DNA of 64,000 nucleotides from IMG/VR virus record IMGVR_UViG_3300032893_000036, positions 1 to 64,000 of that record. One strand, given 5' to 3'. Numbering within the stretch: the first letter of the stretch is position 1; each line of letters begins with the position of its first letter. Positions 33,050-63,116 of this stretch are shown here, piece by piece. Below the pieces are notes generated by a model. That model was not told the DNA's origin, searched no databases, and was given only the letters and a program-made list of their open reading frames with translations. Both the position numbers and the translations under genes were made by a program. The DNA is from a virus.

Positions 33050-33574
33050 TTAGTTACTTCCTTCGTTGGTTACATTCCCCGGAAAGCAACCTGTCTTTCT
33101 GCCGTGAATCCAGTATTTGCCAGATGCTGGACCCAAAACGCGCTCGTACAATTTACATTTGGCATCGGTCTGAATTGAGGACAGGACTCCGATCAGCAAC
33201 GGGAGTCCTAGCTTCTCAGCAGATGATTTGCTGAACTCGATCAATTTGTGGGCGCGCCCACCGCGTGCGTTGCGATAGTCTGGATGGACGAATAATACGA
33301 GTTCTTCCAAGCATGTCTCGTCCGAATAGAACAGCTTGCCGATCTGCAGGACTACGATGCCCTCGATCTTGCCGCCGCGTGGGCCGATGCAGCCGATGAG
33401 TCCGGTTTGAAGATTGAGCTTCGGCCAGATGGTGCGCACAAGCAATTCTGTCTCGAACTTGAGCAACCCGTTTTCCGTCGCTGCCATCATGGCGAGCTGC
33501 ATGATCTCGTCCATGTCCGCCGTGGTGCCGAGGCGGATTTTTAGGTCGTCGTAGATGGAGAGGGTTAGGCTCAT
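33050..33574 (-). CDS. GNAT-family N-acetyltransferase
   Basis: 174 aa from MSLTLSIYDDLKIRLGTTAD. FYSDETCLEELVLFVHPDYR and NARGGRAHKLIEFSKSSAEK give the beta4-P-loop-alpha3 of GNATs (RxxGGRA binds acetyl-CoA pyrophosphate), followed by LPLLIGVLSSIQTDAKCKLY. Such enzymes acetylate small molecules or protein amines; substrate unknown. Overlaps the phosphatase-like gene by 4 nt. Sits among virion genes with a NUDIX protein, so it may modify host or virion targets early or in assembly. Confidence 0.83.
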   Translation of the reverse strand: MSLTLSIYDDLKIRLGTTADMDEIMQLAMMAATENGLLKFETELLVRTIWPKLNLQTGLIGCIGPRGGKIEGIVVLQIGKLFYSDETCLEELVLFVHPDYRNARGGRAHKLIEFSKSSAEKLGLPLLIGVLSSIQTDAKCKLYERVLGPASGKYWIHGRKTGCFPGNVTNEGSN

Positions 33575-33879
33575 TGCGTTAGCCAATCAGCGGCTTGGTG
33601 AGCCATCTGCAGCAATTCGGGATGGATATAGATCCCGAATCTGTCTGGGCCAACATCGGTGACCCGAATCTTTGTCTGATATTCGGCAGGAATACTTTCA
33701 GTCATGTGACCTTGCATCAATACGATCTGATCGGCCCAATCGCATAACATCGTTAAGGTCTTTTTGGACACCCTCAGTCGACCCACGGCGATAGACTCAT
33801 GTCCACGAAGATCGTGCAGGACGTAGGCCAGCGCGTGAGATCGCACGTTCCCGCCATCGCAGACGCATAGATATTTCAC
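33571..33879 (-). CDS. Low-molecular-weight protein phosphatase-like protein
   Basis: 102 aa from a GTG start just after the preceding gene. VCDGGNVRSHALAYVLHDLR has the phosphatase P-loop C-x5-R-S (Cys7, Arg13) near the N-terminus, as in LMW tyrosine phosphatases (LFVCxGNxxRS). TDVGPDRFGIYIHPELLQ supplies a D-P-type acidic loop. It is shorter than true LMW-PTPs (~150 aa), so activity is uncertain. Longer frame upstream overlaps the NUDIX gene. Confidence 0.65.
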   Translation of the reverse strand: MKYLCVCDGGNVRSHALAYVLHDLRGHESIAVGRLRVSKKTLTMLCDWADQIVLMQGHMTESIPAEYQTKIRVTDVGPDRFGIYIHPELLQMAHQAADWLTQ

Positions 33880-33883: not shown

Positions 33884-34843
33884 TCAGTCCTTCCTCGGCG
33901 GCGCAAGCTTCTCCAACTTCCCAATGTGCTCCTTGCGGATCTTGAGCACGAAGGAGTCCAGCACGCGGTGGCCTCGATCCATGTCGCCCGCGCCAATTTG
34001 TTCAACGTGTCTAGGACTTATCACCCACTCACCTCCCGCGGCGACAATCGGCACACCCGAGGCCTCACCACCGTGCGCTTTTCGAGCGCGTAGTTTTTCG
34101 AGCGCCTTACGGACTCCCGGATGCAAGGGGAGTTTTTCCGCTTCAGATGGCTTGATCCAGACCGCTCCATCGTGCTCCTCGTTCAAGGTGGGCTTAAACT
34201 TGTCGGTAGAATGAGCTACGAAGGTTGTGAAATCAACGCCTTGACCTTTGCTGTGCATGAACGGGGATAGACCCCCCTCGTGCGAGTAGCCGGCTTCCTC
34301 TTCGGTCTCGCGCCGGGCCGCCTGCTCAGGCGTCTCGCCCTTTTCGATGCCGCCCGCGGGGAGCGCCCACTCGCCGACGTGGTCCTTCCCCCGGCGACGC
34401 AGCAGCAAGACTTCTTTCTCGGGGGATACGAAAAGGATGCCGGCTGCGTGGTGGACCTTGCCACCGGCCGCGCGGGGCAGTGGCTCGCCATAAGGTCCGC
34501 CCTTCTGACCGTAAGGGCGGTTGCTCGCGCCATACGGCTCACCACCGAACATGCGGCGGAGCACCTTGAACCCCGCCAACGTGTTGTTCTCGCCCAAATG
34601 AGAAACGCAGTCCGCTGGAAGAACGTAGGACCCACTTTCCACTGTAATTGGTAGGTGATCCGTCCGTCCCGCGACCGAACTGTGAATCGGGCCAGAGTGG
34701 AACTTAGTGACGGTCTGGCCGCCCTCGGCGCGTTTGCGGCGGGCGACGTCGAGAGCGATAGCAACGGCTTGCCGATGAGGGTGATTCTCGCTCTCAACCT
34801 CAATGTTGTGACCGATGTTGCGTTTGCCGGGGAGGAGGGGCAC
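33884..34843 (-). CDS. Phage virion-type protein with inserted NUDIX hydrolase domain
   Basis: 319 aa, GTG start. The outer parts (1-125: PLLPGKRNIGHNIEVESENH, HLPITVESGSYVLPADCVSH; 256-319: ASGVPIVAAGGEWVISPRHV, RGHRVLDSFVLKIRKEHIGK) read as one conserved phage protein. A NUDIX hydrolase occupies about 131-250, with a complete NUDIX box GGIEKGETPEQAARRETEEE (164-186, ending AGY). The insert is flanked by RAAGGKVHHAAG and RKAHGGEASG. NUDIX enzymes hydrolyse nucleoside diphosphates linked to another group. Fusion to a structural-type protein suggests the enzyme is carried or assembled with virions (inference). Confidence 0.82.
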   Translation of the reverse strand: MPLLPGKRNIGHNIEVESENHPHRQAVAIALDVARRKRAEGGQTVTKFHSGPIHSSVAGRTDHLPITVESGSYVLPADCVSHLGENNTLAGFKVLRRMFGGEPYGASNRPYGQKGGPYGEPLPRAAGGKVHHAAGILFVSPEKEVLLLRRRGKDHVGEWALPAGGIEKGETPEQAARRETEEEAGYSHEGGLSPFMHSKGQGVDFTTFVAHSTDKFKPTLNEEHDGAVWIKPSEAEKLPLHPGVRKALEKLRARKAHGGEASGVPIVAAGGEWVISPRHVEQIGAGDMDRGHRVLDSFVLKIRKEHIGKLEKLAPPRKD

Positions 34844-34996: not shown

Positions 34997-35361
34997 GAGA
35001 AACTCCCGCTAACAGTCTGCCCGCTCCCCGGCGCAATCGTGATCCCGAACGAGCACGGCAAGTTCACCACATATACCCCCACCGTCTCCGGAATCACATA
35101 CAGCGGCTTGGTCGTGTTGCCCGTCGCCGCCGCGTCATACACCATGCCGGTAGCGGACCCTGCCACAATGACGCTGATTCGTGCGATGCGACCTGCGGAT
35201 GTCTTCACGGTCGTCGCCGCTGTCACCCCTGCGAAGTTTTGCGCGCCTTCGACGTTGAGATACGTCTGCGCAAGCGAGTTGACCGCAGTCGCTAAATTCT
35301 TCGCGACTGTTAGGATGTCGGATAGGGAGGCGCCGCCTTGCTGTTGTGGAGTGGTGACCAT
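34993..35361 (-). CDS. 122-aa small structural-type protein
   Basis: Starts MVTTPQQQGGASLSDILTVA (ATG at 35361 overlaps the previous stop). Helical start, then a beta part (ISVIVAGSATGMVYDAAATG, VIPETVGVYVVNLPCSFGIT) resembling small neck or capsid-decoration proteins. Function not known precisely. Confidence 0.55.
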   Translation of the reverse strand: MVTTPQQQGGASLSDILTVAKNLATAVNSLAQTYLNVEGAQNFAGVTAATTVKTSAGRIARISVIVAGSATGMVYDAAATGNTTKPLYVIPETVGVYVVNLPCSFGITIAPGSGQTVSGSFS

Positions 35362-37460
35362 CAAAATTTGCCATCCGACGCGTATCGATACCTGATGGCT
35401 CCGATTCTCCAAAATGATCCCAGATCGCTGCTAGAAATCCTGATCGATACCAACCGTCCGCGCAGCCGCGTGTTGAAATACTGAGTTGCTTGGGTCACGG
35501 AGTATGGGCCGTAAACTTTGGGCGTATCGCCCGCATAATCGGCTACAAAAAACGTGATGTTCACTGTAGCCGTCTGCGCCTGCGATAATTTACCCCACTT
35601 CATATCCGGCCACACCAAATCGATGAACGTCTTGAGGTCGCCTTCACTCAATGTGAAGTATCCACTCTGAAAATACGGCTGCATCGCCTGCAAGTCCGCG
35701 TCGTTCGAGGTTTCGTGCTGATACAGCAGTCCCGTCACCGGATCAGCACCAATCGGTGGACCCAACACAGACTGATCGACCCAAGCCGTGCGCCCCAACG
35801 TTCCATAGTCCCAGATGTTGAGCGGTGCGGTGTACTTCACGTAGGAGTCCACTTCGCCCGTGCCATTCGCTGACGGGTAGTACCACGTGATCTCACCGAA
35901 GAGAGAATTGACCGCAACTCGGATCTTGTACAGGTTGGCCGTGACCGGATGCAGATTCTGAAACACCTGATCCCACACCGAGCAATACAGCGGCTGCACG
36001 CCGGCCGAGCTCAACGTGAAAAACTGCGAGGGACCCATCCAGTAGCCGATGCCGCCCATAAATGCCGCGGCCTTTCGCGCGATCAATCCGCAGCCCGAGC
36101 CGATCTCGTTGAACGAGTAGACGTACGGAGGTCCGATGTACTGCATCGACCACGCGTCGATGTCAGTCCAGAGAATCGCCTGCTGCGGACCTTGCAGCCC
36201 GCCGACGATCTTGGACCCCTTCGGAATGCGGTATGAGCCCGCCTGGTTGGTCGGGAGCGCGATCCACTGATTGAAATTGTTGACATCACACCAATTCACC
36301 AACAGTGGATCTTGGATGCCGGTCTGAGTACTGCCCCAAGCGACAATTTGCCGCTGCGGCATAGCGACGAACGCACCGTCATTGACCGGCGGCGCGGCCG
36401 TGATGATCGTGGCGCCGGTGACGCTCTCTTCCCACTGGTACAGCGGTTGGAATGGGACCGATCCAGGTGTCAGCGTCTGGTCCGCGCAGGCGATCAGGAT
36501 CTCGCCCCAGTTATCCAGCGTCCAGTCGTTCGCCGGAATGAACGTGCCCGATGCCGGTGAGACCGCGTTGCCGGTGCCGTAGCCGCCCGCACCATAGGCC
36601 CCAGCGCCGTAGCCGATACCGCCCGGAATGGTGCCGTAGCCGAAGGAATAGATGAAGTGGGCGTTACCCCCGTTTAGCGTGCCGGAGGTCGTTTCGTTCG
36701 CGGGATTGCTGCCGATGATCGTGAAGTTGCTGCCATCAACTAGCGACTGCACGACGTAATTGCCGTAGAGCTGGATGCCCCCGACAGTCGTCGCCACCAG
36801 CACGGGGAAAGTCTCGCCCACCTGATAGGTGTAGTTCGGCAACGTGACGGTCACCGTGAGTGACCCGCTGACGGTGTTGAATACCGGCAACACGGGCGAA
36901 CTTGAGTTGCTTGTCGCAGGCAATGGGTTGCCCAGTTTGTCGGTCGCCTGCACCGTGTAGGCCGTGTTGCTCAGCAGTCCGCACTGATAGAGCCCGAACA
37001 GCACCACGCCGCCGATGCTGATTTGCGTCGCGATGTAGACCGAATCGTAGCCGGTGATGCCTTGAGTCGTGGTGTCTGTGATCGTGACGGTGGCGCTGGT
37101 CGAGGTCGTGGACACGACGGGCGCGATGTCTTCGGATGACTGTTGCGGCGTGATGTACTGCAGGATGCCGTTCGTGATCACGCCTAGGAGCGCGTAGCCT
37201 TGGGCTGCGATGGTCTGCGTACCGACAGCCAAGTGAGTGTTGAGATTCAGGTCCTCCCAGGCCCACAGCGCTCGAGCCGTGGCGGGCATAGGTTGGCCAA
37301 AATATCTAGACCATCCTCCGATCTTCTGGACAAGGCCGACGCCGTTGCGATCCGGCATGAATCGAACCAACTGCGACTGCGAAATGCCCGAGTTTTCGTT
37401 GAGTGCAGGAGTCTCTTGCGTGTCAACTCCCGGGACTAATCTGAGGGTGGCGTGCGGCAT
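35361..37460 (-). CDS. Large neck/tail hub protein (P22 gp10-like, DNA-stabilisation)
   Basis: 699 aa. The start LRLVPGVDTQETPALNENSG and the end SIRISSSDLGSFWRIGAIRY match the layout of podophage packaged-DNA stabilisation/nozzle proteins, which form a beta-propeller below the gp4-like ring. Glycine-rich loops (IGYGAGAYGAGGYGTG) lie in the middle. Neighbouring gp4-like and adaptor genes support a neck role. Assigned by composition and context, not by a strong motif. Confidence 0.68.
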   Translation of the reverse strand: MPHATLRLVPGVDTQETPALNENSGISQSQLVRFMPDRNGVGLVQKIGGWSRYFGQPMPATARALWAWEDLNLNTHLAVGTQTIAAQGYALLGVITNGILQYITPQQSSEDIAPVVSTTSTSATVTITDTTTQGITGYDSVYIATQISIGGVVLFGLYQCGLLSNTAYTVQATDKLGNPLPATSNSSSPVLPVFNTVSGSLTVTVTLPNYTYQVGETFPVLVATTVGGIQLYGNYVVQSLVDGSNFTIIGSNPANETTSGTLNGGNAHFIYSFGYGTIPGGIGYGAGAYGAGGYGTGNAVSPASGTFIPANDWTLDNWGEILIACADQTLTPGSVPFQPLYQWEESVTGATIITAAPPVNDGAFVAMPQRQIVAWGSTQTGIQDPLLVNWCDVNNFNQWIALPTNQAGSYRIPKGSKIVGGLQGPQQAILWTDIDAWSMQYIGPPYVYSFNEIGSGCGLIARKAAAFMGGIGYWMGPSQFFTLSSAGVQPLYCSVWDQVFQNLHPVTANLYKIRVAVNSLFGEITWYYPSANGTGEVDSYVKYTAPLNIWDYGTLGRTAWVDQSVLGPPIGADPVTGLLYQHETSNDADLQAMQPYFQSGYFTLSEGDLKTFIDLVWPDMKWGKLSQAQTATVNITFFVADYAGDTPKVYGPYSVTQATQYFNTRLRGRLVSIRISSSDLGSFWRIGAIRYRYASDGKF

Positions 37461-38246: not shown

Positions 38247-38887
38247 TCGGTCACCTGCGGAATCTGCGCCGATCCGCGCGGCAGGCCGACCAAGCACGTG
38301 ATCATGCGCGTGGATTCTGTCAGCAAAGATCCCGCAGCAACCGGATTGGCCGTCGTGTAGATGAACGAGATCGGCGTGTACATGACGACGCTGAAAAATC
38401 CGCAAGCATTCACATTCGATAATCCCTGCACCGCAATCTGATTATCGTTCATCAGGTTATGCGGAGCCGAGCAGCTCACATAGATGGTCGTGGTGCCGTT
38501 GGCAATGACCGACAGCACTGAAATCGGCACGCCGAAGGCCTTTTGCACGACTCCGTCGTAGGGCATCACAGCGTTGATGTCGAGACCCGTCGGCACGCCA
38601 ATCGGCTGGTTGGCGTCGATCTCTTCGAAGTTGAAGTTCTCGGGGCGTGGATACGTGATAGGCACCGGATCTGCAGGTAGCAAGATCGCGCGCAATTGCT
38701 CCTGCGGTGTATCCAAGCACGTACGGCATACTAACAATCGGATGTTCTGAAGACTCGTACCTCGCCAGTCGTATTGCCACTGCAAATCAACGTAGTTATA
38801 CCATATGCCGCAACGATCACAGACGGCTTGCGCCTGCGGTTTTTTTGCGGAAACTCTCGCGCGGCCGGCTTTACTGGCGTAACTCAT
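38243..38887 (-). CDS. 214-aa neck-region protein with N-terminal zinc finger
   Basis: CDRCGIWYNYVDLQWQYDWR and LLVCRTCLDTPQEQL form a four-Cys finger at the N-terminus; the rest is beta-rich. The zinc-finger neck protein with D-R-C and C-x2-C recurs in podophage neck clusters. ATGA overlaps at both sides. Confidence 0.6.
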   Translation of the reverse strand: MSYASKAGRARVSAKKPQAQAVCDRCGIWYNYVDLQWQYDWRGTSLQNIRLLVCRTCLDTPQEQLRAILLPADPVPITYPRPENFNFEEIDANQPIGVPTGLDINAVMPYDGVVQKAFGVPISVLSVIANGTTTIYVSCSAPHNLMNDNQIAVQGLSNVNACGFFSVVMYTPISFIYTTANPVAAGSLLTESTRMITCLVGLPRGSAQIPQVTE

Positions 38888-39570
38888 CGGTAGTACCCGT
38901 TGAGCGCCGGAGACACGTATGTGTTGGCGGTTTCAATGTTCTGACGACTCGCGATACCCCACGACTCATCGGCTGCGGCTTTGAGCCCTACCGCTCTATC
39001 TGGCGCCCATATGAGAGCCAACCGCGCGGCCAATCCGAACACATAAGGTTCCAAAAAGTACCACGGAATTTCAACACTGGTTCCATTCGACAAAACAGAA
39101 TCCTGAGTCTGCCTCAATCGATAGTAACTAAACGATGCTTGCTGTCCATTTGGCACCAGCCATAGAGTCAAAGTCGGCGACAACAAACGGTTGAACCAGC
39201 ATACGGTCGGGCTTCCCTGCTGTTGTTTATTTGGATAGTTAGCGTATTCAGTACGGCTAACTGGCGTCACAATCCGGTCAATGTTTTGCTGTCCATTGCT
39301 GATCGTGTAATACATGTCCAACATGACTATGGTGTTGCTCGGAACGTCGTATGTGGCCTTCCCTTGCATCAGGGGAACCGTTTGCAAATCCACTTGCCAG
39401 AGGTTGACGCCGTCCGCGCTCCAGCGACCCATCATCATGTTGGTCGCCATGCGCGCATCTTCCATATGCTGCTGCGTGATCGCTGTTCGCCGCACGCCGC
39501 ACATCCCAAAAGCGTATAGAACCGCCTCCCCCATGGCAGGATCGAAGTCATAGGTGCCGGATGTATTCAC
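38884..39570 (-). CDS. P22 gp4-like tail accessory/head-tail connector protein
   Basis: 228 aa, GTG start (GTGA overlap). VNLWQVDLQTVPLMQGKATY, VTPVSRTEYANYPNKQQQGS, PWYFLEPYVFGLAARLALIW and VGLKAAADESWGIASRQNIE follow the gp4/gp14-type helical connector that mounts the tail on the portal. The size fits (gp4 is 166, others about 200-230 aa). Confidence 0.75.
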   Translation of the reverse strand: MNTSGTYDFDPAMGEAVLYAFGMCGVRRTAITQQHMEDARMATNMMMGRWSADGVNLWQVDLQTVPLMQGKATYDVPSNTIVMLDMYYTISNGQQNIDRIVTPVSRTEYANYPNKQQQGSPTVCWFNRLLSPTLTLWLVPNGQQASFSYYRLRQTQDSVLSNGTSVEIPWYFLEPYVFGLAARLALIWAPDRAVGLKAAADESWGIASRQNIETANTYVSPALNGYYR

Positions 39571-39944
39571 GTTGACACCCCCGGCGACACGTTCACGTTC
39601 CCTTGCGTGAGCCGCGTCACGGTTCCTGCGGCATCCGTCAGCAGCAAGTCATACACCCCGTTCCACCATGTAAACGTCGCGGTTGCAGATGCCGGAATGT
39701 CGATCGTGATAATTCCCGTCGGTCCGCCCAGCGTGATGTTCGAACTGGCGTCATACAGGATCGTTGTCGCGAGCGGGTACGGCAGGATCTGCAAGGTAGG
39801 CGTATATCCGGTCAGATCCACCGGTAGCGTCTGCAACCCACCGTTGACCACCGGTTGCGGCGACAGCCACGTGAACGCCTGCAGGTAGGTCGCCCATTGC
39901 TTGATGCATAAATCAAACCGGAAGGTGCCGCAGCCGCAGTTCAT
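39567..39944 (-). CDS. 125-aa small virion protein
   Basis: Starts MNCGCGTFRFDLCIKQWATY, then beta strands (TGYTPTLQILPYPLATTILY). Three Cys within the first 13 residues. GTGA overlap with the gp4-like gene. Function unknown; probably a baseplate or neck component. Confidence 0.55.
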   Translation of the reverse strand: MNCGCGTFRFDLCIKQWATYLQAFTWLSPQPVVNGGLQTLPVDLTGYTPTLQILPYPLATTILYDASSNITLGGPTGIITIDIPASATATFTWWNGVYDLLLTDAAGTVTRLTQGNVNVSPGVST

Positions 39945-41149
39945 TGGATGACCGTTTTGTTAGGAGGCAAGATGCTCACAACTATGGGGATGTTGCTGAT
40001 TAGAATACTCTCTACAATGGGAGTAGGTGACGGACCGTGCTGCGGACCCAGTGAAATTTCCAAAGTGACCGCTTCGCCAGTGAATACCAGCGTGTCCTTC
40101 GGAATCGACTGATAGACGACCGTCAAGGGAGGAGCGCCGGAATACACATACTGCAAGGTGATAGTCGCCGCAAACAGCGATTCCAATTGCGCAATCGCCA
40201 CATTCTGGAGCTCTCCGACTACCCACGGCATGAATGTGAGGAGTTGTGGAGTAGCGAGAATGGCTGCTCCGCGTGTCCCTAGCTGCGTGCCCCAGAATTC
40301 GGGCGGCCATAGCGATATCGTGAATTGCGGCGGAGATCGAGGCACGGGAGGTGGTATTGGCGCCTGTCCACTCGCGATATCTGGAAAAGTCTGCGCAGGC
40401 CAGTCTTCCTGTGGCCAGATTGAACGGAGTGCGGCAGCGAGCGATCGATTGATGTATGGGAGTGCCGCAGGCACCGTCGAAAACAGCGTGGCTATTCGAG
40501 GCGCTGTCTGTGCGCTCCATTGTTCCTGAGTCCATTGCTGACCCTCAAGGTGCGGCACAGGCCGTGGCGTATAAATGGCCGGCTTCGGATACCAGCCAGC
40601 CGACTTCGGTCCGGTCTGCGCAGGCCAATCCTCTCGAGGCCACGTCGACACCAGCATGAGCAGGGTATCGCCATACCAATTCGGTGTGTAAATCGGCGGC
40701 AACTGGACTTGTGCAAGTCCCGAGGCAATGCCCGATTCCGATTGCGCATACCACTGTTCAGGATCCCAAAGCCCTCGAATGACAGCGAGTGCGGCAGGCC
40801 GTGAAGGGTATGCGATGGGACCAGTGACTACTGATGCGAAGAAATTGGCGATATGAGCGCCGCGCTGCGCATCCCATGATTCGGACGGCCATGACTGGCG
40901 AATCGCCGCCAATACCGCCGGATTGGTAGCCGCAATGGCGACCGGAGGAACAAAGGGAGCGGCAAATTGTGCCGCAATGGTATCGCCACTCTGGGCCGCC
41001 CATGTTTCGGGCGGCCACATTGAGCGAATCGCATCGAACAAAGTTCCGGGCCCAATCGGGTTGGGCGGGATATTCGACCGCGCCGCCGCGTTCGGCGGAA
41101 GATGTACAGCTGCCGGCTGCGGAGGCGGTGGGTTATACCAGTGCCCCAC
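39941..41149 (-). CDS. 402-aa protein with seven WPxExWxAQ repeats
   Basis: No known domain recognised. The motif W-P-x-E-x-W-x-A-Q recurs seven times with first Trp at residues 45, 87, 128, 170, 206, 245 and 281 (period 36-42). Examples are WPPETWAAQ, WPSESWDAQ, WDPEQWYAQ, WPREDWPAQ, WTQEQWSAQ, WPQEDWPAQ and WPPEFWGTQ. Each repeat ends with a short helix (x4-IA) and a Pro-rich linker. Residues 1-36 are Pro/Ala-rich; the last ~100 are beta-rich. It is encoded between neck and fibre genes, so a virion spacer, tail-fibre network or host-binding solenoid is likely (inference). Confidence 0.75.
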   Translation of the reverse strand: MGHWYNPPPPQPAAVHLPPNAAARSNIPPNPIGPGTLFDAIRSMWPPETWAAQSGDTIAAQFAAPFVPPVAIAATNPAVLAAIRQSWPSESWDAQRGAHIANFFASVVTGPIAYPSRPAALAVIRGLWDPEQWYAQSESGIASGLAQVQLPPIYTPNWYGDTLLMLVSTWPREDWPAQTGPKSAGWYPKPAIYTPRPVPHLEGQQWTQEQWSAQTAPRIATLFSTVPAALPYINRSLAAALRSIWPQEDWPAQTFPDIASGQAPIPPPVPRSPPQFTISLWPPEFWGTQLGTRGAAILATPQLLTFMPWVVGELQNVAIAQLESLFAATITLQYVYSGAPPLTVVYQSIPKDTLVFTGEAVTLEISLGPQHGPSPTPIVESILISNIPIVVSILPPNKTVIQ

Positions 41150-41168: not shown

Positions 41169-41657
41169 TTATGCCGTCTCGCGGAAGACCATTCCGGCGT
41201 TCCAATTACCCAAGCTTCCTGGAGCAGCCGGAAAGTGCAGCCCCATACCGGACGCCGCACCTGCGTTCAGCGTGTACGTCTCCGGCGGGGTGGGCACCCA
41301 CAGCCAGCCGTTCACGATCGAAAAGGCATCCGGATACAGGATCGTCTTCGCGCCGGCACCTTCGGCCGAGGCGTTGACGCCCGCTGTGCCGGCTGCACCC
41401 GCAGATCCACCAGTAATCTGCGACGCTGGATCCAATAACCAGTTCTTCGCCGGCGTCTGCGAGGTCAGGGTCGGGAAGGCCGACACCTGCGTATTGATCT
41501 GAACGCGCTGCTGGGCGGTGTTGTTGGAGCTCGACTGCGATGCCCACATGCGCAGGAACTCAAGGGAGGTCGTCGTGCCCACGTTCACGAACACGAGGGA
41601 GACGGCTTGGTTGGCCAAGGTGAGATTAGCACCTGCGACCGTATACGTGCGGGCCAT
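41169..41657 (-). CDS. 162-aa structural protein
   Basis: MARTYTVAGANLTLANQAVS; Ala/Gly/Thr-rich beta protein with SLEFLRMWASQSSSNNTAQQ and SIVNGWLWVPTPPETYTLNA. Such phage proteins are commonly head decoration or tail-tip beta-sandwiches. Function unknown. Confidence 0.6.
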   Translation of the reverse strand: MARTYTVAGANLTLANQAVSLVFVNVGTTTSLEFLRMWASQSSSNNTAQQRVQINTQVSAFPTLTSQTPAKNWLLDPASQITGGSAGAAGTAGVNASAEGAGAKTILYPDAFSIVNGWLWVPTPPETYTLNAGAASGMGLHFPAAPGSLGNWNAGMVFRETA

Positions 41658-41697: not shown

Positions 41698-41982
41698 CTA
41701 CGCAAAGCTACGTCCCGTCCATTGGCGCCAGCCTTGGACGGTAAAAACACGAATCTTGCCGTTGCGGCGCTCTATCCGGGACGCGACGGCGCCCGTTGGC
41801 TGTCCATTGCGGAGCACGCTGAAGGCGTACTCGCCGAATGGACCCGGCTGCATATCGGTCCCAAGACACCAGACCGCGCCCATCTCATCGAAGATCGTGA
41901 GTGCGGGCGGGCTTGAAACGTAATTTTCGGTAATGTGGAACTGCTCCTTTGGCGGGAGCATGTATGGCTGAATTATTGACAT
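41698..41982 (-). CDS. 94-aa hypothetical protein
   Basis: MSIIQPYMLPPKEQFHITEN, then beta strands with EYAFSVLRNGQPTGAVASRI. Overlaps the next adhesin gene by 10 nt. Part of the adhesin cluster. Function unknown. Confidence 0.55.
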   Translation of the reverse strand: MSIIQPYMLPPKEQFHITENYVSSPPALTIFDEMGAVWCLGTDMQPGPFGEYAFSVLRNGQPTGAVASRIERRNGKIRVFTVQGWRQWTGRSFA

Positions 41983-42671
41983 ACCTGAACTACCATCCCT
42001 CCGAGGGCCATTGGCGCATAGGGCACGTAGGCTGCTGCCACCGGCTTATAGACAGCTACCAGCGCTGCCCATTTTGAACTGAACGTGAGTGTTCCCCAGT
42101 TGGCGCCCGCGCCAGCAGTGCTTGTCAATGTTTGATAATTGACATCGGCATTGTCGCTTTTGATTCCGCTGATTTCAGTGTAGGTACCAGTGCCGCCAGT
42201 GGGCGGAAACGTACCGCCGCCGGAATTGAGAGCACCGTGCCAAATTACTGCGAAGGCCAATTCACTGATATTGGCTAGCGATGACGTCGCAGCCACACTC
42301 GGCGTTGCGTTGTTTCCGCCATTGGTAGAAGTCTGATCGACTGCAACTGGTAGTACTTCAAATGCAACTATTGCGCCTTCGCTATTGGATGGAGATCCTG
42401 AACTAGCAGTCGCAGTGATTGTATGACTTCCAGCATTCACCGCCGTCAAGCGAAATAGTGCGGAGGTTGCAGCACCTCCGCTGTTGACGACTAGGTCGGA
42501 TGAGTACGAGCCCTGCCCATCAGAAACTGAGATAGTCGGACTAGATCCGCCAAGGTCCCCATGCGATACCGCCACTACGATGTGATTGTTTGCGGTAACA
42601 CCTGTCAGCGTCACGCTGGTAGATAGCGATCCGTTGAAATGGCCTGGGCTGGATACTTGAACGGGGGTCAC
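41973..42671 (-). CDS. 232-aa beta-sandwich adhesin-type protein (paralogue A)
   Basis: GTG start. Contains VTANNHIVVAVSHGDLGGSS, TISVSDGQGSYSSDLVVNSG and ALVAVYKPVAA; the same plan occurs in the protein at 46361-47089 (NDTILVVCRGS..., TISDTLGNTYQ). Both are Gly/Ser/Thr-rich, as in tail-spike side domains. Likely paralogues. Confidence 0.62.
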   Translation of the reverse strand: MTPVQVSSPGHFNGSLSTSVTLTGVTANNHIVVAVSHGDLGGSSPTISVSDGQGSYSSDLVVNSGGAATSALFRLTAVNAGSHTITATASSGSPSNSEGAIVAFEVLPVAVDQTSTNGGNNATPSVAATSSLANISELAFAVIWHGALNSGGGTFPPTGGTGTYTEISGIKSDNADVNYQTLTSTAGAGANWGTLTFSSKWAALVAVYKPVAAAYVPYAPMALGGMVVQVCQ

Positions 42672-42853
42672 TGCGAATTACCCTGACGAGAGTGATATTC
42701 CTCGGCGTGTGACTTCGCTAGGTTATGTACATGCGTAGTCCGATGATCGTACTCGTGCAATTTAGCCATGAAGATAGGAATCTGGTCTTTTGGCACTCCA
42801 AATCGCTCCAATTCCTCAGCATACTTTTGTATGAACCAACCTACATTGCTCAT
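42668..42853 (-). CDS. 61-aa helical hypothetical protein
   Basis: MSNVGWFIQKYAEELERFGV, then HDRTTHVHNLAKSHAEEYHS-like charged helix. ATGA overlaps on both sides; a TTG five codons earlier is possible. Coiled and small; perhaps a chaperone or adaptor for the adjacent adhesin. Confidence 0.5.
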   Translation of the reverse strand: MSNVGWFIQKYAEELERFGVPKDQIPIFMAKLHEYDHRTTHVHNLAKSHAEEYHSRQGNSQ

Positions 42854-44769
42854 GGTGACGTGTCCCAAAGAGACGGGTTGACCAACGGCGTAACGAAGCC
42901 GCTATTTGCATTGACTAGTGCGGTAATAGATGTTGTATTCAAACAGATACTCGTCTGAAAATTCCATATCATAGATTTCGCACCATATCCGGTATGTGCT
43001 CCATGTGTAGTCAATGATTTCCGGGTCATCGTATCATCGAAGAATGCTTGATTAGATCCACTTGGCGGTGGGCACCCGGAGAAATTGGATCCGGTTCCCA
43101 TACCCTGTCCTTCACAATTATTTGTCGTATTTGCACTATCCCGAATGTCACCCAGAGACCCACTCACGCCCGCAATCAAATTCTGAAACGTGTTCGCCCA
43201 TTGCGTCGAATGAGTGCCATAACACGCGGGATCTGGACCACCATACAGAATGCCTGATGGATAGGCGCTATTCATCGATGTGTAGAAGTCTTGTAATCCA
43301 TCAATCTCTTGTGTGCCACCATCACTTGGGTAGTAAGACATCGGTGCCCATAGAGTGCGCCGAACGGTCCGGCTGCTCATGTTCGCCGCCAAGTTAAGAT
43401 GCAGTGTCTTGAACTGCGAAATGTAATTCGCGGCCGAGCAGATTGGTTTTCCGTTTATATCAACATTTGCGGTCTCTGATTCATCGGCAGTCATTAGCCT
43501 GTCAACGCGGATATCGGTATCCAGACTATCGATAACATCCAACATGCCGGTATACATCTCTTGCAGTCTTGACCAGACTACCGGATTATCATTTGCGAGT
43601 TGACCGCGGCCAGCCGTATTGGGCTGGATGAATACCTGAACCATCGCTGGGCTGGCGCTGATGACCCAAGAAGGCCACATGGCAGTATCATTTACTTTGG
43701 CGGTAGAGAGAACGAATTGACCGTCTGCACCAATTCCGGGAGAACCGTCGAGCGTGATAGTAGTCGATGTTGAAGATAGAACATTGCGAGTATTTCCACC
43801 GCAAGAACAGATCTTGCCTCCAGTACCAACACTGCCGAATCCGGTAGTTAGTGTAATCGTATTCCCGCTTACAGATGTCGCATTTCCGATAAATGTCGAA
43901 TAGAACGCCCCTTGCCAAAATTCGACATCAAGATAGATCTTCTTCGTCGTGCGAGCACGAAGCGTAGTTAGAACGTCAGTTAGATTGGTGCGGAAAATAT
44001 TGAATGTCTGGGCTCCTCCAGTCAGTGTTGGATCGCTGATATTTGCCCATGTGAAAATGATCTTCACGCGATTAAAGAAGTTCGAAGTATTGGCAATGAT
44101 TCCTAGATTGCTATTGAAATCGGCTCTCTGATTGCTCTGAGGGCTGATCGTGTAGAAAGGATTGTTGAACCAGGCGCCGTGTCCTGGATGAAACTTAGGC
44201 AGAGTGCCGGTAGCTGACTGCGTCGTACCGGTTACTGGACCACTTTGTGCACCTTCACCGAATGAATTACTCCCCGATACGTTGTAGGTATAACTGGTGG
44301 ACGCAGTAAGACCGGTATCCGTCGTTGATGTTCCCGCAATGCCGGTCTGTACTTTAGTACCATTGCGATACAGGTTGTACGTGCTTGCGCCCCCGACTGG
44401 CGCAGTCCAACTGAGCGACACCGACGAACTCGTGGTCCCCGTGACCGCGAGTCCCGTCGGCGCATTCGGTACCGCACCCGTGGTGCCTGTCGTCTGATTG
44501 CTTCTTGAGCCCTCGCCGAGTGGCTTCACGCCAGTCACGTAGTACGTATACGAAGTACCCGGCGTGAGGCCCGTATCGGTGGTGGCCGTTGATACAATCC
44601 CGCTCTGTACCTGAACGCCATTTCGGTACAGGTTGTACGTGCTTGCGCCCCCAACGGGCGCAGTCCAACCCAACGACACCGTCGACGTCGTACTGCCGGT
44701 CACCGCCAAACTGAGCGGCGGATTCGGCAGTGGTGAGCCGGTCGATTTCTGTCCTGGGAAACTAGCCAC
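42850..44769 (-). CDS. Adhesin/depolymerase with two fibronectin-III domains and a glycosidase-like region
   Basis: 639 aa. Residues ~15-190 hold two FN3-like domains with near-identical WTAPVGGASTYNLYRNG repeats 86 residues apart (258-bp period in DNA). The remainder (from ~200) resembles a beta/alpha-barrel (FTWANISDPTLTGGAQTFNI, KKIYLDVEFWQGAFYS, RVDRLMTADESETANVDING). Acidic residues at YLDVEFWQ and ADESE are candidate catalytic groups. FN3 modules are common in phage adhesins as spacers. Polysaccharide cleavage is inferred. Confidence 0.68.
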   Translation of the reverse strand: MASFPGQKSTGSPLPNPPLSLAVTGSTTSTVSLGWTAPVGGASTYNLYRNGVQVQSGIVSTATTDTGLTPGTSYTYYVTGVKPLGEGSRSNQTTGTTGAVPNAPTGLAVTGTTSSSVSLSWTAPVGGASTYNLYRNGTKVQTGIAGTSTTDTGLTASTSYTYNVSGSNSFGEGAQSGPVTGTTQSATGTLPKFHPGHGAWFNNPFYTISPQSNQRADFNSNLGIIANTSNFFNRVKIIFTWANISDPTLTGGAQTFNIFRTNLTDVLTTLRARTTKKIYLDVEFWQGAFYSTFIGNATSVSGNTITLTTGFGSVGTGGKICSCGGNTRNVLSSTSTTITLDGSPGIGADGQFVLSTAKVNDTAMWPSWVISASPAMVQVFIQPNTAGRGQLANDNPVVWSRLQEMYTGMLDVIDSLDTDIRVDRLMTADESETANVDINGKPICSAANYISQFKTLHLNLAANMSSRTVRRTLWAPMSYYPSDGGTQEIDGLQDFYTSMNSAYPSGILYGGPDPACYGTHSTQWANTFQNLIAGVSGSLGDIRDSANTTNNCEGQGMGTGSNFSGCPPPSGSNQAFFDDTMTRKSLTTHGAHTGYGAKSMIWNFQTSICLNTTSITALVNANSGFVTPLVNPSLWDTSP

Positions 44770-52469: not shown

Positions 52470-53054
52470 TTACGAGGCCAGGTTGATACCTTGAGCGTAA
52501 GTGACCGTCAGCGTGCCGACGCCACTTCCCGTGTTGGTGGATAGTACGACGACTTGGATGTCCTGCGTACCGACGTTGTCCCAGTTGCCGATTTGGGTCG
52601 CGCCCGTTCCGGGGACGATGCTCACCTGACCCAAGGCACCCGAGGTCACGACCGCATTCGCCGCCGTCAGTGCGGTTGCGGATGCGCCCGTGCCAAGGCC
52701 CAGAGTCGTCGCGCCACCCGTCCACGCGGTCGTCACCATCAGTTTGATCGAGTGAATCTGGCTCTGCGCCGGAATCACAATCGGGCAGGCGAACTGCCCG
52801 GCGGTACCCGTGTTGGTCGCCTGCGTGATCACGCACGACTGCGACATCACGACATAGCCCTGATTGCAGGTGCCGACCGTGCCGCCCACGCCCGCAAGGT
52901 TGCCAGTGCCATCTGAAGCGAGCACCGAGCCCACAATCAGCGGGCCTTGAAACTCGGTACCAGGAAGCGCCGGGCTACCGTTCGGCTGTGTCAGCGCGCC
53001 CGGCTGTGTATCAGGTAGCGTCTGGCCGCTGGTGGGGGTGATGTACTGGGTCAT
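52470..53054 (-). CDS. 194-aa structural protein
   Basis: MTQYITPTSGQTLPDTQPGA; Thr/Ala/Gly beta protein with two Cys (GTCNQGYVVMSQSC). Next to capsid genes; may be a head-decoration or fibre protein. Overlaps the HNH gene by 4 nt. Confidence 0.6.
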   Translation of the reverse strand: MTQYITPTSGQTLPDTQPGALTQPNGSPALPGTEFQGPLIVGSVLASDGTGNLAGVGGTVGTCNQGYVVMSQSCVITQATNTGTAGQFACPIVIPAQSQIHSIKLMVTTAWTGGATTLGLGTGASATALTAANAVVTSGALGQVSIVPGTGATQIGNWDNVGTQDIQVVVLSTNTGSGVGTLTVTYAQGINLAS

Positions 53055-53782
53055 TTCACTTCCTCGGTCGTGACAATCGTCAGGGCCGGAGTAGTCGGCT
53101 CACGACCGGAATGCTTGTCGAGGTACTTCACGGCGGCGAGCAGGATATCTCGATTATCCTTTGCTTTGCCCAACATCTGATTGCATTCCGAGCAGAGCAA
53201 CGCGCGTACTTTACCCGTTTCATGGTCGTGATCGACTGAAAGTGCTTTCACTTTGCCGCCACGAGTATGGGTCTCTTCGCCGTTGCATATTGCGCATTTT
53301 CCGCTCTGAGCAATCAGCATCTGGCCGTACTCTGCCAGCGAAAGATTGAACTTGCTGCGTAGATGGGCGTCCTTCCAGTCCATACCCTGAGCAGCCTGAT
53401 ATTCGCGATTGTAATCAGCGCGCCCCTCCGGCGTGCTCAGATCATGCGGAGTCGTTATTGAATTAGACTGCCGCAGATTCTGAATCCGCAGATTGAGTGG
53501 ATCGCCGTCCTCGAAATAAATCTTCCCTATAGGCCATTCGCCGTAATGGAGTGCCCAAGCGACTCGTTGAGCTGGCATCGACGCACCAAGCACGCGGACA
53601 TACCTGTATGCGCCCTTGCTGCCATCTGAGAGCGTTCGCGTGGACTTAGTGCAGCCCGCTTCGGAGCCAACACGTACCTTAGATGCGCTCTTGACGCGCC
53701 AGAAAATCTTACCGGTCTCAGGGTCGTAAACGAAAATCTCGGCCAGCTTCTCAACCGGCACTGCGTTTTGATCGAAAGGCAT
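53051..53782 (-). CDS. HNH-type homing endonuclease fused to an endonuclease-VII-like domain
   Basis: 243 aa from MPFDQNAVPVEKLAEIFVYD. First part (about 10-115) is HNH_3-like: ASMPAQRVAWALHYGEW, FEDGDPLNLRIQNLRQSNS. The second part (about 135-225) is endonuclease VII-like (T4 gp49 type): CAICNGEETHTRGG, LSVDHDHETGKVRALLCSEC, with C-x2-C...C-x2-C zinc and H-D-H catalytic core. Two nuclease modules in one chain are unusual. It sits directly downstream of the major capsid gene. See the hairpin/promoter at 53786-53818 for its control. Confidence 0.88.
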   Translation of the reverse strand: MPFDQNAVPVEKLAEIFVYDPETGKIFWRVKSASKVRVGSEAGCTKSTRTLSDGSKGAYRYVRVLGASMPAQRVAWALHYGEWPIGKIYFEDGDPLNLRIQNLRQSNSITTPHDLSTPEGRADYNREYQAAQGMDWKDAHLRSKFNLSLAEYGQMLIAQSGKCAICNGEETHTRGGKVKALSVDHDHETGKVRALLCSECNQMLGKAKDNRDILLAAVKYLDKHSGREPTTPALTIVTTEEVK

Positions 53783-53785
53783 ATA

Positions 53786-53818
53786 AGTCTCCAAGTTGTT
53801 GTTGGAGACTATAGTATA
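53786..53818 (-). promoter_or_regulatory. SD-sequestering hairpin overlapping a -10 promoter element
   Basis: On the minus strand, AGTCTCCAA-CAACAAC-TTGGAGACT is a perfect 9-bp stem (53786-53810). Its 3' arm contains the SD GGAGAC of the ATG at 53782. TATACT (53813-53818) is a good -10; -35 is poor. Transcripts begun from this promoter would start about 53806, inside the 5' arm, and lose half the stem. Read-through transcripts from the capsid gene would fold fully and hide the SD. Confidence 0.6.
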
Positions 53819-53883
53819 TCCTTTAGATAAAACGGCGGAAATCATTTTTTGACAGATAACTTTTGGAGATTTATGAAAGATAA

Positions 53884-54798
53884 TCAGCTAGTTGGGAACG
53901 AGCCGTAGAGCGATCTCCAATTGAAGTACGAAAGGCTATAGCGCTCGTATCCCTTGACTAAAAGGTTATCAGTAACGAAGTCCACCTGCATGTCGCTCTC
54001 GTACGGAATGCGCTCCATGTAGGCGAGTCCGGGGATGTTGGTGAGCCCGAACCACGCGAACTGCGAGGTCAGGAAGTCCATCACCATGTAGCCTTCTGGG
54101 ATGCCGCCAGCCGTCGACAGGATCGCGTTGACGTCGTTGTCGGCGGTGCCAGGCCGCAGTTCGGTCTTGGTCAGTCGAATTGCGACCGGCTCTAACTGCG
54201 GGGGTACGATCAGCTTGCGGAAGCGGGCGAACATCTTCAGTCCCGCCTGATCCTTGAAGTTCGTGCGGACCGACACCTGCGCGTTCAGCAGCGTCGCTTC
54301 GTTCAAGTCCACCTGCGTGGTCGGCGTGTTTGCAATCGTCGCGCCGTCGATCGGGTGGGTCGTCGCGCACAGCGCAACACCGTCACCGTTCACGTTCGCG
54401 TTGTAGGTCGTCGCGGTGTTGAGGACGTTCGCGCCGTAGATCTCTTTCGCTTGGTGGAACGACTCCATCAGCCCCAAGTTGGACGGGTGGAACTGGGTCT
54501 TGTACAGGTTATCGTCGATCGCTTTGCGCGTGATCGCGTAGCCCAAGCCGATCTCGATGTGCTCCTGGTTGTAGACGTATCGCTCGCCGGCATTGTTATC
54601 GAATGCCGTCTGGCCGCCTTCACTCTTCAGCTGCGCGAGAGGCAAGTAGCGCATCTCGGCCGTGCGCTCAAGCGCCAGCTTTGAGGTGTACTTGGTGAAG
54701 ACTTTGTCATATTGAGACGGGATCTGTTCATATTTTCCGGTGACACCCCGGAGCCCCGGCAGCAACAGGTCTTTGATGGCTGAAAGATTAATTGCCAC
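53884..54798 (-). CDS. Major capsid protein (HK97-fold, Mu GpT-like)
   Basis: 304 aa. MAINLSAIKDLLLPGLRGVT, then the E-loop-like segment with Lys/Arg/Glu, HQAKEIYGANVLNTATTYNA (spine helix), TTHPIDGATIANTPTTQVDL and ending ERYSLSYFNWRSLYGSFPT. These match Mu GpT-like/T5-like capsids (~300 aa). No protease domain or scaffold-like delta region is present. Flanked on both sides by HNH genes; scaffold, GroES-like, portal genes follow upstream. Confidence 0.87.
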   Translation of the reverse strand: MAINLSAIKDLLLPGLRGVTGKYEQIPSQYDKVFTKYTSKLALERTAEMRYLPLAQLKSEGGQTAFDNNAGERYVYNQEHIEIGLGYAITRKAIDDNLYKTQFHPSNLGLMESFHQAKEIYGANVLNTATTYNANVNGDGVALCATTHPIDGATIANTPTTQVDLNEATLLNAQVSVRTNFKDQAGLKMFARFRKLIVPPQLEPVAIRLTKTELRPGTADNDVNAILSTAGGIPEGYMVMDFLTSQFAWFGLTNIPGLAYMERIPYESDMQVDFVTDNLLVKGYERYSLSYFNWRSLYGSFPTS

Positions 54799-60194: not shown

Positions 60195-60472
60195 GGGGAA
60201 CCCTCGAATGGTTTGTCGGCGACATTCTCGGCGGGAATGACAAAAAGCGGCTGAAGCGGGTGGCTGTCCGCCTTCTCGCCATCCTTGAATGCGGCTATCT
60301 CTGTTGGCAGCCGCTGCGACATCGACAGTTTCATCGCAAAATCATAGGCGGGATCCGACTCGCCCAGCGAGAAGTCTCGCACGGGTTCCCACTGGCCCGC
60401 GCACCAGCGCTGCACTCGGAGCGATGCACCGGAGCTGACGGGGTCTGTCCAGCGGATGATACGAACTCTCAC
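60191..60472 (-). CDS. 93-aa hypothetical protein, GTG start
   Basis: MRVRIIRWTDPVSSGASLRV; GTGA overlap with the portal stop. Small alpha/beta with PVRDFSLGESDPAYDFAMKL. Function unknown. Confidence 0.55.
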   Translation of the reverse strand: MRVRIIRWTDPVSSGASLRVQRWCAGQWEPVRDFSLGESDPAYDFAMKLSMSQRLPTEIAAFKDGEKADSHPLQPLFVIPAENVADKPFEGSP

Positions 60473-62865
60473 TGCGTAATTCCTCGATCCACATCCTGAA
60501 TGATCTTGTGCGCTTTGTTACCCACGCCGTCAACGTTCGGCTTGTGGGCTTTCCCGTCGGCGCCCGGCGGCTTGTGCGCTTTCACCAAGTCGGCCGCGAG
60601 CGCGATGGCGGCATCACGCTCTTTCGCCTGCCGGTCCTGATCGCGATTCTGATCCTCGATATGCATCTGCTGAATCTGCTGCCGGACCTGCAGTCGCTTG
60701 GTCTGTGCATCGTACAGCTTTGATTGCGCGTTCAATTTGTCGACGGGCGTGTCCACCTGCTGCGAGCCGGCGAGGCCCGCAGCCTGCGGCTTGGGCGCGT
60801 AGTGTCCGACAGCGATCTTATTTTCAGCCTCTTTGTGCGTCGCCATCGCTTCTACGAGATCGGCCTTGGCGCGCATCGAGTCGGCGTCGGCCTTCTTGGT
60901 CTCGTTCGCCATCTCTGTCTGCATCTGGATCAGCTGCGGCGGCGGCGCCGCGCGCGCTTGCTGCGGCACAAAGAACTCCTCGGGATTGGCCCATCCCATC
61001 ACGTTCAGCGCCGCAGTATCGCACTTGATCGGATCATATAGGTTGGGGCTCGCACCCTGCAGTTGCTTCAGGCCCATCACCTTCATGATCCGCTGGCCCT
61101 GCGATGACGTGTTCGGATCCGCCTGCGGGACCAACTCGCAGTTGTTCAGGGCGGCGATGAACTTCGCCTTGTCCCACACAGTCTTGGATTTGCAGCCGCG
61201 CTGCCAGAATGTCTCGGGGTTCTCTTTGAACTCACGTTTGAGCAGTTGGAACTCCTCGGCCTGCGCGGCGTGCATGCGCTTGTGCACGGCGTTCATGACC
61301 TTGATCGCCTGGTCGATCATCGCCATGACCGTCCCGACCGGCACATCCGCCCGCCCCTCACCAACTTGCACCTCGGCCGTGCCGCCGATCCGGCGGCCGG
61401 TCTCGGCCATATTGTCCGTCAGGCTCATGAGCGCCGGCATCTGCTGCGTGCTGTAGGGCAGCGCCATGATTGCGTCGCGCAGCGGCACGCCGTTGGTCTT
61501 GACTGGGGCGCCGCCGCCCGGCGGCACGCGAAAAATGTTGGTGTTCTGGCGGCCCCCGCTGTCTTGCATCAGGAAGCCGGGGAAATTGGCAAACATGCCG
61601 TTGTCCAGCATCTCGCGCCAAGCAGCCGTGATCGCATTCGTCGTATTGCCGAGGATGTGCAGCAGTCCGATCCCGTAGAATCCGAGCCCCGGCACGAACG
61701 GGAACTTTACGAATCGCTGCCTTGCGACCGGCAGCTTCTCCGTCTCCTTGTCGAATCGCCGTACGACTGATAGCGCCTGACGGGATGACACGTCGATAGT
61801 CACCACGTACGGAATCGCGAGCCCGGTCACCTTGCCGTCGATCTTGTGTTCGAAGCCCGCAATATCGAGCTCGCAGCAGCACTCGTACAACTCGCGCTCC
61901 CGGTCGACGGGCCGGCGCATGCCGTTGTCAGATAATCCCTGTTGCGCCTTTTCTTCCTGCTGTAATGCGTCCGACTGCGGGATCACGGCGTCGCCGAGTT
62001 CCACGTCCCGATACACCTTCAGGATCTGCATGCGCTTCAGCGTCGACGGCCGCATCATGACCCGGTGAGTCACCCGCTGCGCGTTCGCCAAGTCCGTCGC
62101 CGATTGGTTCACGATCAAATCATCGGCGTCGATCGACTCTGACACCGGGCGGTTCCTGAGCGGGCACGTGTAGACCTTTTTGAAGCCGTCCCCCCCAAAG
62201 CCCGTCATGAACAGCATCCTGTCCGTGTCGGGGTAGTACTCGGTCGCGACCGCGGTCAGGTAATGATTGAAGTCCTGCTCAAGCGCGGTGGCAAGCTGAT
62301 CCGTCACCAAGTCTGGCGATGTCGAATCATTGCGAATTTTCACTGGGCCGTCGGTCGGCAGGAGTTCGGAGCGGGCATTAGCTTGGAACCGGAGTACTGC
62401 CTCAAGCAATAGGGGATGCCGGACCTTGCTCATTCCTTCCACGGGCGCGCCATCGGCGCCGCCGGCCACGTTCGGGAGCTCGATCTTGAGGCCGAGCAAT
62501 TTCACACCGAGGGCCCTGTCCTCAATCCATTCCTGCCGGGACTGCAAGTCGTCCGCAATGCCCTGCAGCAAGTCATCTGTGATCCGGGCAAGTTCATCCG
62601 CTGGGATGTGCTCAGCCAGATTGCCAAACCATTCTGTCGGCCCTTCATTCGCCGGGTTCACGTTGCCGAGAGGGCGCCCATCCAGCGAGACCGTGATCGC
62701 GCCGTCGGGGTGGCTGATCCGCAGGATATTGCCGGCGTCGTCGATATCTGGTGTGTCGGCTTGGTCGTCGGATACGTCCACGACGACTTTCGCGGCATCG
62801 GGCAGCTCCGGGTCGGGCTGGCCGACGATCCGAAGGTTGTGGATGTTGCCAGCGAGGCCGCTCAC
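60469..62865 (-). CDS. Portal protein (podophage, Bcep22/P22-like)
   Basis: 798 aa from GTG at 62865 (GTGA overlap with the preceding gene); a longer reading upstream is non-coding in style. Middle blocks HYLTAVATEYYPDTDRMLFM, WREMLDNGMFANFPGFLMQD, RVPPGGGAPVKTNGVPLRDA and DRPxGRRIGGTAEVQVGEGR-like segments match large podophage portals (700-800 aa). The C-terminus is a long helix/coiled coil (LNAQSKLYDAQTKRLQVRQQ) and basic tail, the barrel region. It forms the dodecameric ring for packaging. Confidence 0.85.
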   Translation of the reverse strand: MSGLAGNIHNLRIVGQPDPELPDAAKVVVDVSDDQADTPDIDDAGNILRISHPDGAITVSLDGRPLGNVNPANEGPTEWFGNLAEHIPADELARITDDLLQGIADDLQSRQEWIEDRALGVKLLGLKIELPNVAGGADGAPVEGMSKVRHPLLLEAVLRFQANARSELLPTDGPVKIRNDSTSPDLVTDQLATALEQDFNHYLTAVATEYYPDTDRMLFMTGFGGDGFKKVYTCPLRNRPVSESIDADDLIVNQSATDLANAQRVTHRVMMRPSTLKRMQILKVYRDVELGDAVIPQSDALQQEEKAQQGLSDNGMRRPVDRERELYECCCELDIAGFEHKIDGKVTGLAIPYVVTIDVSSRQALSVVRRFDKETEKLPVARQRFVKFPFVPGLGFYGIGLLHILGNTTNAITAAWREMLDNGMFANFPGFLMQDSGGRQNTNIFRVPPGGGAPVKTNGVPLRDAIMALPYSTQQMPALMSLTDNMAETGRRIGGTAEVQVGEGRADVPVGTVMAMIDQAIKVMNAVHKRMHAAQAEEFQLLKREFKENPETFWQRGCKSKTVWDKAKFIAALNNCELVPQADPNTSSQGQRIMKVMGLKQLQGASPNLYDPIKCDTAALNVMGWANPEEFFVPQQARAAPPPQLIQMQTEMANETKKADADSMRAKADLVEAMATHKEAENKIAVGHYAPKPQAAGLAGSQQVDTPVDKLNAQSKLYDAQTKRLQVRQQIQQMHIEDQNRDQDRQAKERDAAIALAADLVKAHKPPGADGKAHKPNVDGVGNKAHKIIQDVDRGITQ

Positions 62866-63116
62866 GCTATCTTCGCCTTCGGCGCCACCGAGCACACCCC
62901 CGGTATCCGCCGTCCGAACTCGGCCACAAACAGCTCCATCCCCTTGATCGCTGCGGAATTGTCCGAGTCCGCCGCAATCGGGTACACCCGCCGGTACCCG
63001 TGCGGGAACTCCCCGACCACCGTCACCTGAAACACATACGGCCGCTGCGCCCGGCTGATCAGCTTCACGGTCGCCTTGCAACGGGGGGTCGCGTTCTCGA
63101 GGGTGAGTATCGTCAC
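62862..63116 (-). CDS. 84-aa hypothetical protein, GTG start
   Basis: MTILTLENATPRCKATVKLI, FQVTVVGEFPHGYRRVYPIA; beta/alpha. First gene of the late leftward operon. TATTCT lies about 13 bp upstream as a possible -10. Function unknown. Confidence 0.5.
   Translation of the reverse strand: MTILTLENATPRCKATVKLISRAQRPYVFQVTVVGEFPHGYRRVYPIAADSDNSAAIKGMELFVAEFGRRIPGVCSVAPKAKIA

What the first reader, a model, noticed from the sequence alone, without database searches (positions are those of the whole stretch)
39941..41149. Seven-fold WPxExWxAQ repeat protein, apparently a new repeat family
The 402-aa protein has seven copies of W-P-x-E-x-W-x-A-Q with first Trp at residues 45, 87, 128, 170, 206, 245 and 281. 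The period is 36-42 residues and each copy is followed by a short helix (x4-IA) and a Pro-rich linker. I recognise no known repeat family. The conserved Trp/Glu pattern suggests a regular solenoid or a string of peptide-binding units, encoded between neck and fibre genes.
Basis: partly seen in the sequence, partly recalled or inferred. Interest (0 to 1): 0.72.

Follow-up and report, generated by a model that had tools for sequence, protein, structure and literature searches.

The report
Tryptophan-proline repeat arm of phage appendage
This phage gene encodes a protein with seven copies of an uncatalogued tryptophan-proline repeat ending in a PASTA-like domain; it travels in a small gene cassette between unrelated phages and is probably the stalk of a host-binding appendage on the virus particle, though no experiment has yet placed it there.

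Summary
The repeat is real. The 402-aa gene lies on the minus strand (39941-41149, GTG start) and has seven W-x4-W-x2-Q motifs at residues 45-281. The strict WPxExWxAQ form occurs in four, the relaxed form in all seven, against at most two in 20,000 shuffles. Nine distinct carriers were found, all metagenomic phage contigs: the window, L033, L076, L075, L085, L091, L114, L161, L162. No relative came up in 50,697 annotated phage records; a motif scan of 84,980 bacterial and archaeal genomes gave no credible hit. No Pfam or PHROG model matches the repeat.

In all nine carriers the gene directly follows a jelly-roll gene and a ~95-aa gene; looser Trp/Pro-rich proteins follow the same jelly-roll gene in about 24 of 55 loci. 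The cassette sits beside adhesin-like, fibre-adaptor, connector or terminase genes and occurs in unrelated phages.

Best reading: an extended arm of a virion host-recognition appendage with interchangeable ends. A solenoid is not supported (AlphaFold model uninformative). Virion location and binding partners are inferred.

The parts
39941..41149 (-). Trp/Pro repeat protein (REP), 402 aa, GTG start
   Evidence: no Pfam or PHROG hit
40256..41041 (-). Seven-repeat region (residues ~37-298), unit I-R-S-x-W-P-x-E-x-W-x-A-Q-x4-I-A-...-PP, period 36-42
   Evidence: motif W/W/Q 21/21 conserved in homologues
40046..40231 (-). C-terminal PASTA-like domain, residues ~307-368
   Evidence: PF03793 above cut-off in homologue L076 (26.9 vs 23.2 bits); 4-sequence profile hits PknB PASTA structure 2kui E=1.5e-5 over profile positions 307-371; the window sequence alone gives no Pfam hit
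41169..41657 (-). 162-aa jelly-roll protein, constant upstream partner of REP
   Evidence: present before all nine REP-type genes; AF2 pLDDT 90.4; structural matches at best Z about 8 to plant-virus capsids, haloarchaeal tailed-virus turret, phage cement and C1q/TNF heads
41698..41982 (-). 94-aa conserved small protein, second constant partner
   Evidence: 76-93% identity in the closest REP loci; homologues in 43 of 55 jelly-roll loci
41973..42671 (-). Adhesin-like protein with variable body and conserved C-terminal tail (GGMVVQVCQ)
   Evidence: weak PHROG tail hit
39567..39944 (-). 125-aa protein just downstream (phrog_1084; weaker match to L-shaped tail fibre assembly families)
   Evidence: retained next to REP in L080
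38884..39570 (-). SU10-type head-tail adaptor
   Evidence: PF24175 32.1 bits, cut-off 27

Best explanation
REP is a structural part of a host-recognition appendage attached near the neck/tail of the virion. Its N-terminal head (MGxWYxPPPPQP...) and 7-9 Trp/Pro repeats form a long, weakly charged, extended arm rather than a globular solenoid. The C-terminus is an interchangeable end piece: a PASTA-like domain here, a Gp77 fibre-tail-adaptor domain in L075, charged apparently helical tails in L114 and L162, and a short tail followed by a separate Gp77 gene in L085 and L091. Each repeat's W-x4-W-x2-Q probably docks on a copy of a partner, most likely the jelly-roll protein encoded directly upstream, so that the arm carries or anchors several receptor-binding heads. 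SHOWN: the repeat, its conservation, the constant gene order, the domain swap, occurrence of the cassette in unrelated phages. INFERRED: presence in the virion, extended shape, partner identity, and PASTA binding of cell wall.
For: (1) Constant partners: all nine REP-type genes directly follow the 94-aa and jelly-roll genes. (2) L075 fuses the repeats to PF23148 Gp77 'Podophage GP4 fiber-tail adaptor' (30.3 bits, cut-off 27). In L085, L086, L087, L091, L097, L101, L130 and L137 a separate Gp77-like gene directly follows the Trp/Pro protein (local HMM; Pfam confirmed for L087), and in cultured phages Gp77 relatives lie beside large tail-type genes, annotated minor tail protein in Mycobacterium phage LilDestine. 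(3) Neighbours are connector or adhesin-like genes: SU10 adaptor in the window; head-tail adaptor before, and head closure Hc1 and tail terminator after, in L087. (4) The jelly-roll partner folds confidently and resembles decoration, cement, turret and C1q/TNF-like trimers. (5) Low charge (12%), Pro 14%, Trp 6% in the repeat region, motif conserved while linkers drift, purifying selection. (6) The cassette moves: the jelly roll is 87% identical between the window phage and L082, whose portal and MCP are only 24% and 30% identical.
Against: No virion proteomics or structure. The AF2 model of REP is meaningless (pLDDT 27.8), so extended versus folded is undecided. The window itself has no Gp77 homologue, so its attachment point is unknown. 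About half of the jelly-roll loci lack a Trp/Pro-rich protein, so the jelly roll does not need it. Structural matches of the jelly roll have Z around 7-8, a level that may mean only a common fold.
Confidence: 0.45

Rival explanations
1. Capsid or neck decoration: REP is an extended strap lying on the head or connector surface, each Trp motif docking at a repeated capsid site, with the jelly roll as cement or spike; adsorption is secondary.
For: In L087 the cassette lies inside the head-tail connector block, between head-tail adaptor and head closure genes; jelly-roll resemblance includes KHP40 cement, cyanophage Pam1 capsid chain and HFTV1 turret; low-charge Pro/Trp-rich chain.
Against: Gp77 fusion and neighbours point to a fibre adaptor; lectin/adhesin-like genes directly precede the cassette; the repeats persist in phages with very different capsid proteins (MCP 30% identical).
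Confidence: 0.2
2. The repeats themselves are the receptor-binding units: a flexible multivalent string in which each W-x4-W binds a host surface ligand (glycan or peptide), with PASTA contacting peptidoglycan.
For: Multivalent spacing and strictly conserved aromatics; PASTA-like domain, a family known for cell-wall/muropeptide contacts (established knowledge, not tested here).
Against: Receptor-binding tips usually diversify, yet the motif is the most conserved part; dN/dS about 0.12; separate lectin/adhesin-like genes sit alongside.
Confidence: 0.2
3. Non-structural assembly factor (fibre or adhesin chaperone), absent from the mature virion.
For: Encoded directly after appendage-type genes, as some fibre assembly factors are; the next gene (39567-39944) weakly matches L-shaped tail fibre assembly families.
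Against: PASTA and Gp77 ends and low-charge Pro/Trp composition suit a structural part better.
Confidence: 0.1

Closest known systems
PASTA domain (PF03793), e.g. PknB extracellular region
   Same: REP residues ~307-368 (homologue L076 above the Pfam cut-off; 4-sequence profile hits 2kui at E=1.5e-5)
   Different: A single divergent copy on a phage Trp/Pro repeat protein; the window sequence alone is below detection
Gp77, podophage GP4 fibre-tail adaptor (PF23148)
   Same: C-terminal domain of the nine-repeat homologue L075; separate gene right after Trp/Pro proteins in eight loci, among them the REP-type L085 and L091
   Different: Absent from the window protein and from the window ORFs; Gp77 relatives looked at in four cultured phages do not sit beside a Trp/Pro repeat protein
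Uncharacterised Trp/Pro-rich phage proteins starting FYPPPP..GGxQPYAP (L137, L101, L097, L138, L105 and others)
   Same: Same position after the jelly-roll gene, similar N-terminal start, ~36-50-residue Trp/Pro period, and PASTA in L138 and L092
   Different: They lack the W-x4-W-x2-Q core; linked to REP only through intermediates L085, L091 and L114 in a small BLAST set with the low-complexity filter off, and not reached by the unit HMM
SU10-like podophages
   Same: Window phage has an SU10-type adaptor (PF24175) beside REP
   Different: Of 70 loci sharing the window's 699-aa stabilisation/nozzle-type protein only one carries REP; many are fragments that do not reach the region

Membership tests
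PASTA domain (PF03793) | Profile score above Pfam gathering cut-off | tested here: inconclusive
   Met by homologue L076 (26.9 vs 23.2 bits), not by L073 (15.2 bits) nor by the window sequence alone; same aligned region, 69-73% identical proteins
PASTA domain (PF03793) | Match to solved PASTA structures by sequence profile | tested here: met
   A1 profile positions 307-371 vs PknB 2kui, E=1.5e-5
PASTA domain (PF03793) | PASTA fold in a confident model | tested here: inconclusive
   AF2 pLDDT 27.8 over the whole protein
Gp77 fibre-tail adaptor (PF23148) | Domain present in the window protein | tested here: not met
   No Pfam hit; local Gp77 HMM finds nothing significant in the window ORFs; present only in homologue L075
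Known repeat families catalogued in Pfam | Match of the repeat region to any Pfam or PHROG model | tested here: not met
   0 Pfam families at E<=10 and 0 PHROGs at E<=1 for the window protein; in L073, L076 and L075 Pfam finds only PASTA or Gp77
Trp/Pro repeat family defined here | W-x4-W-x2-Q units found by the 30-unit HMM | tested here: met
   Window, L033, L076, L075 (source of the units); then L114 3.6e-12, L085 2.8e-8, L091 5e-4; L161 7e-21, L162 5.7e-8 with the iterated HMM
Virion structural / tail appendage protein | Presence in purified virions | not testable with these tools
   Needs mass spectrometry or cryo-EM; all sequences are metagenomic

The most novel reading that the evidence does not exclude
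The repeats are a docking ladder: every W-x4-W-x2-Q binds one jelly-roll trimer, so the repeat number (7 or 9) sets how many receptor-binding heads hang on one arm, and swapping the C-terminal module (PASTA, Gp77, helical tail) re-anchors the same ladder on unrelated phages.
Probability: 0.12. Interest if true: 0.75.

Novelty: new variant of a known kind. Interest (0 to 1): 0.45.

Why it matters
It defines a repeat family missing from Pfam and PHROGs and ties it to a mobile gene cassette (adhesin, 94-aa protein, jelly roll, Trp/Pro repeat arm, often Gp77) shared by otherwise unrelated metagenomic phages. If the arm is the host-recognition scaffold, this cassette would be a unit by which phages exchange host recognition, and a new way to build a multivalent adhesin.

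Tried and rejected
AlphaFold2 of REP on four homologues: pLDDT 27.8, unusable. Foldseek against PDB for the jelly roll: nothing at E<=0.001, matches with poor rmsd; BFVD gave mainly uncharacterised phage proteins. Genome scan for a double motif: two stretches; one (L078, Magnetococcales) is a low-complexity Trp-rich frame, and the other (L077) has no ORF with two motifs in one frame, so both were rejected. Relaxed motif scan: eleven new contigs; only low-complexity or isolated matches, none reached by the unit HMM at a significant E-value. GP4 record not held. Literature searches on the fibre-tail adaptor, PASTA phage virion proteins and Pro-rich phage repeats found nothing relevant in the held library. 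L134 follows the jelly roll but has no BLAST link to the family. Weak Pfam matches of looser proteins (QueF_N, Multi_ubiq, SidM) are below cut-off and ignored.

Full report
OBSERVATION. The gene at 39941-41149 is on the minus strand, 402 aa, GTG start with an AAGGAG site upstream and an ATGA overlap with the next gene. Seven W-x4-W-x2-Q motifs start at residues 45, 87, 128, 170, 206, 245 and 281 with spacings 42, 41, 42, 36, 39, 36; four match WPxExWxAQ literally. Shuffling the protein 20,000 times never gave more than two. The window lies in a 67,220-base IMG/VR record.

NEIGHBOURHOOD. Reading along the minus strand: fn3 protein 42850-44769, adhesin-like 41973-42671, 94-aa protein 41698-41982, 162-aa protein 41169-41657, REP, 125-aa protein 39567-39944, SU10-type adaptor 38884-39570, and the stabilisation/nozzle-type protein 35361-37460. 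Portal (60469-63309) and major head protein (53884-54798) lie further upstream.

RELATIVES. A direct protein search found nothing in IMG/VR or in 50,697 phage records. A double-motif DNA pattern found L033/L073, L076 and L075; alignment A1 holds them (69, 73 and 39% identity to the window). L079 is the L076 contig and L081 a partial copy on another contig. Using the conserved 162-aa partner gave 58 loci, of which 55 were analysed. A 30-unit repeat HMM then reached L114, L085 and L091, and a last scan added L161 and L162. Nine distinct REP-type proteins result; in each, the 94-aa and 162-aa genes come directly before. Two of these searches started from the 162-aa gene, but the window, L033, L076, L075 (motif scan) and L161, L162 (repeat-protein scan) were found without it, so the linkage is not an artefact of the query.

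DOMAINS. Pfam finds PASTA at 308-367 of L076 above cut-off, weakly in L073, and not in the window alone; the alignment profile hits PknB PASTA structures over the same region. L075 ends in Gp77 PF23148. L138 and L092, looser Trp/Pro proteins, also carry PASTA (E 1.4e-22 and 4.1e-13). The local Gp77 HMM finds 13 loci; in nine it is fused to or directly after the Trp/Pro protein. The window has none. C-terminal ends of L114 and L162 are charged and look helical by eye.

BROADER SET. About 24 of 55 jelly-roll loci have a Trp/Pro-rich ORF with an FYxPPPP-like start next (classification by eye, some are near-duplicates). A BLAST network links most of them step by step from REP through L085, L091 and L114 to L105/L095 and L137/L101/L097, but the filter was off, the database tiny and the composition biased, so this wider family is a lead, not a demonstrated homology. 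The repeat HMM does not reach them.

PARTNER. The 162-aa protein gives a confident model (pLDDT 90.4, 49 sequences). Structural matches (best Z 8.1) are to jelly rolls of plant-virus capsids, HFTV1 turret, KHP40 cement, Pam1 capsid chain and C1q/TNF-like heads; this is a fold, not a function.

MOBILITY AND SELECTION. In L082 the 94-aa and 162-aa proteins are 76 and 87% identical to the window's while portal and MCP are 24 and 30%; DNA similarity to L082 is confined to the 162-aa gene (73.6% over 459 bp), so the transfer is not recent. REP dN/dS is about 0.12-0.21 and the 162-aa protein about 0.04-0.11, with dS near saturation. Of 70 loci sharing the window's 699-aa protein only L033 has REP, though many are short.

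MECHANISM. Most likely an extended arm in a virion appendage, with Trp motifs docking partners and a swappable end piece. Gene order, fusion and selection are shown; virion presence, shape and partners are inferred. Pfam's naming of Gp77 rests on podophage GP4, whose structure paper (J Mol Biol 2023, cited in PMC11784390) is not in the held library.

VERDICT. A real, uncatalogued repeat in a mobile phage cassette; a new variant of the known kind 'modular phage appendage protein'.

Noticed in passing
41973-42671 (-) and the equivalent ORFs upstream of the 94-aa gene in L085-L138: Adhesin-like proteins end in short conserved tails: APILAQ/GGMNVQVC/GGMGSILVQ types in loci with a Trp/Pro protein, RMIGLV types in many loci without one; possibly matching attachment peptides.
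   Followed up: partly
42850-44769 (-): 639-aa protein with two fn3 domains and a long C-terminal part without a family match.
   Followed up: no
L006, L008, L010, L013, L029 just upstream of the adaptor: A ~350-420-aa protein that reads like a glycosyltransferase with TPR-like repeats occupies part of the same variable slot in related phages.
   Followed up: no
4512-6749 (-) and 6746-8143 (-): Adjacent helicase genes; the first joins helicase and DNA methyltransferase PHROG matches.
   Followed up: no
53051-53845 (-): Protein matching HNH endonuclease at its N-terminal half and endonuclease VII at its C-terminal half.
   Followed up: no
L134:5559-7571: 671-aa protein after the jelly roll with ~55-residue repeats of a different kind (QNPVFG...ILQGLWQAAADA).
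   Followed up: no
33884-34843 (-) and 33050-33586 (-): Nudix-type hydrolase and acetyltransferase-type genes between virion protein genes.
   Followed up: no
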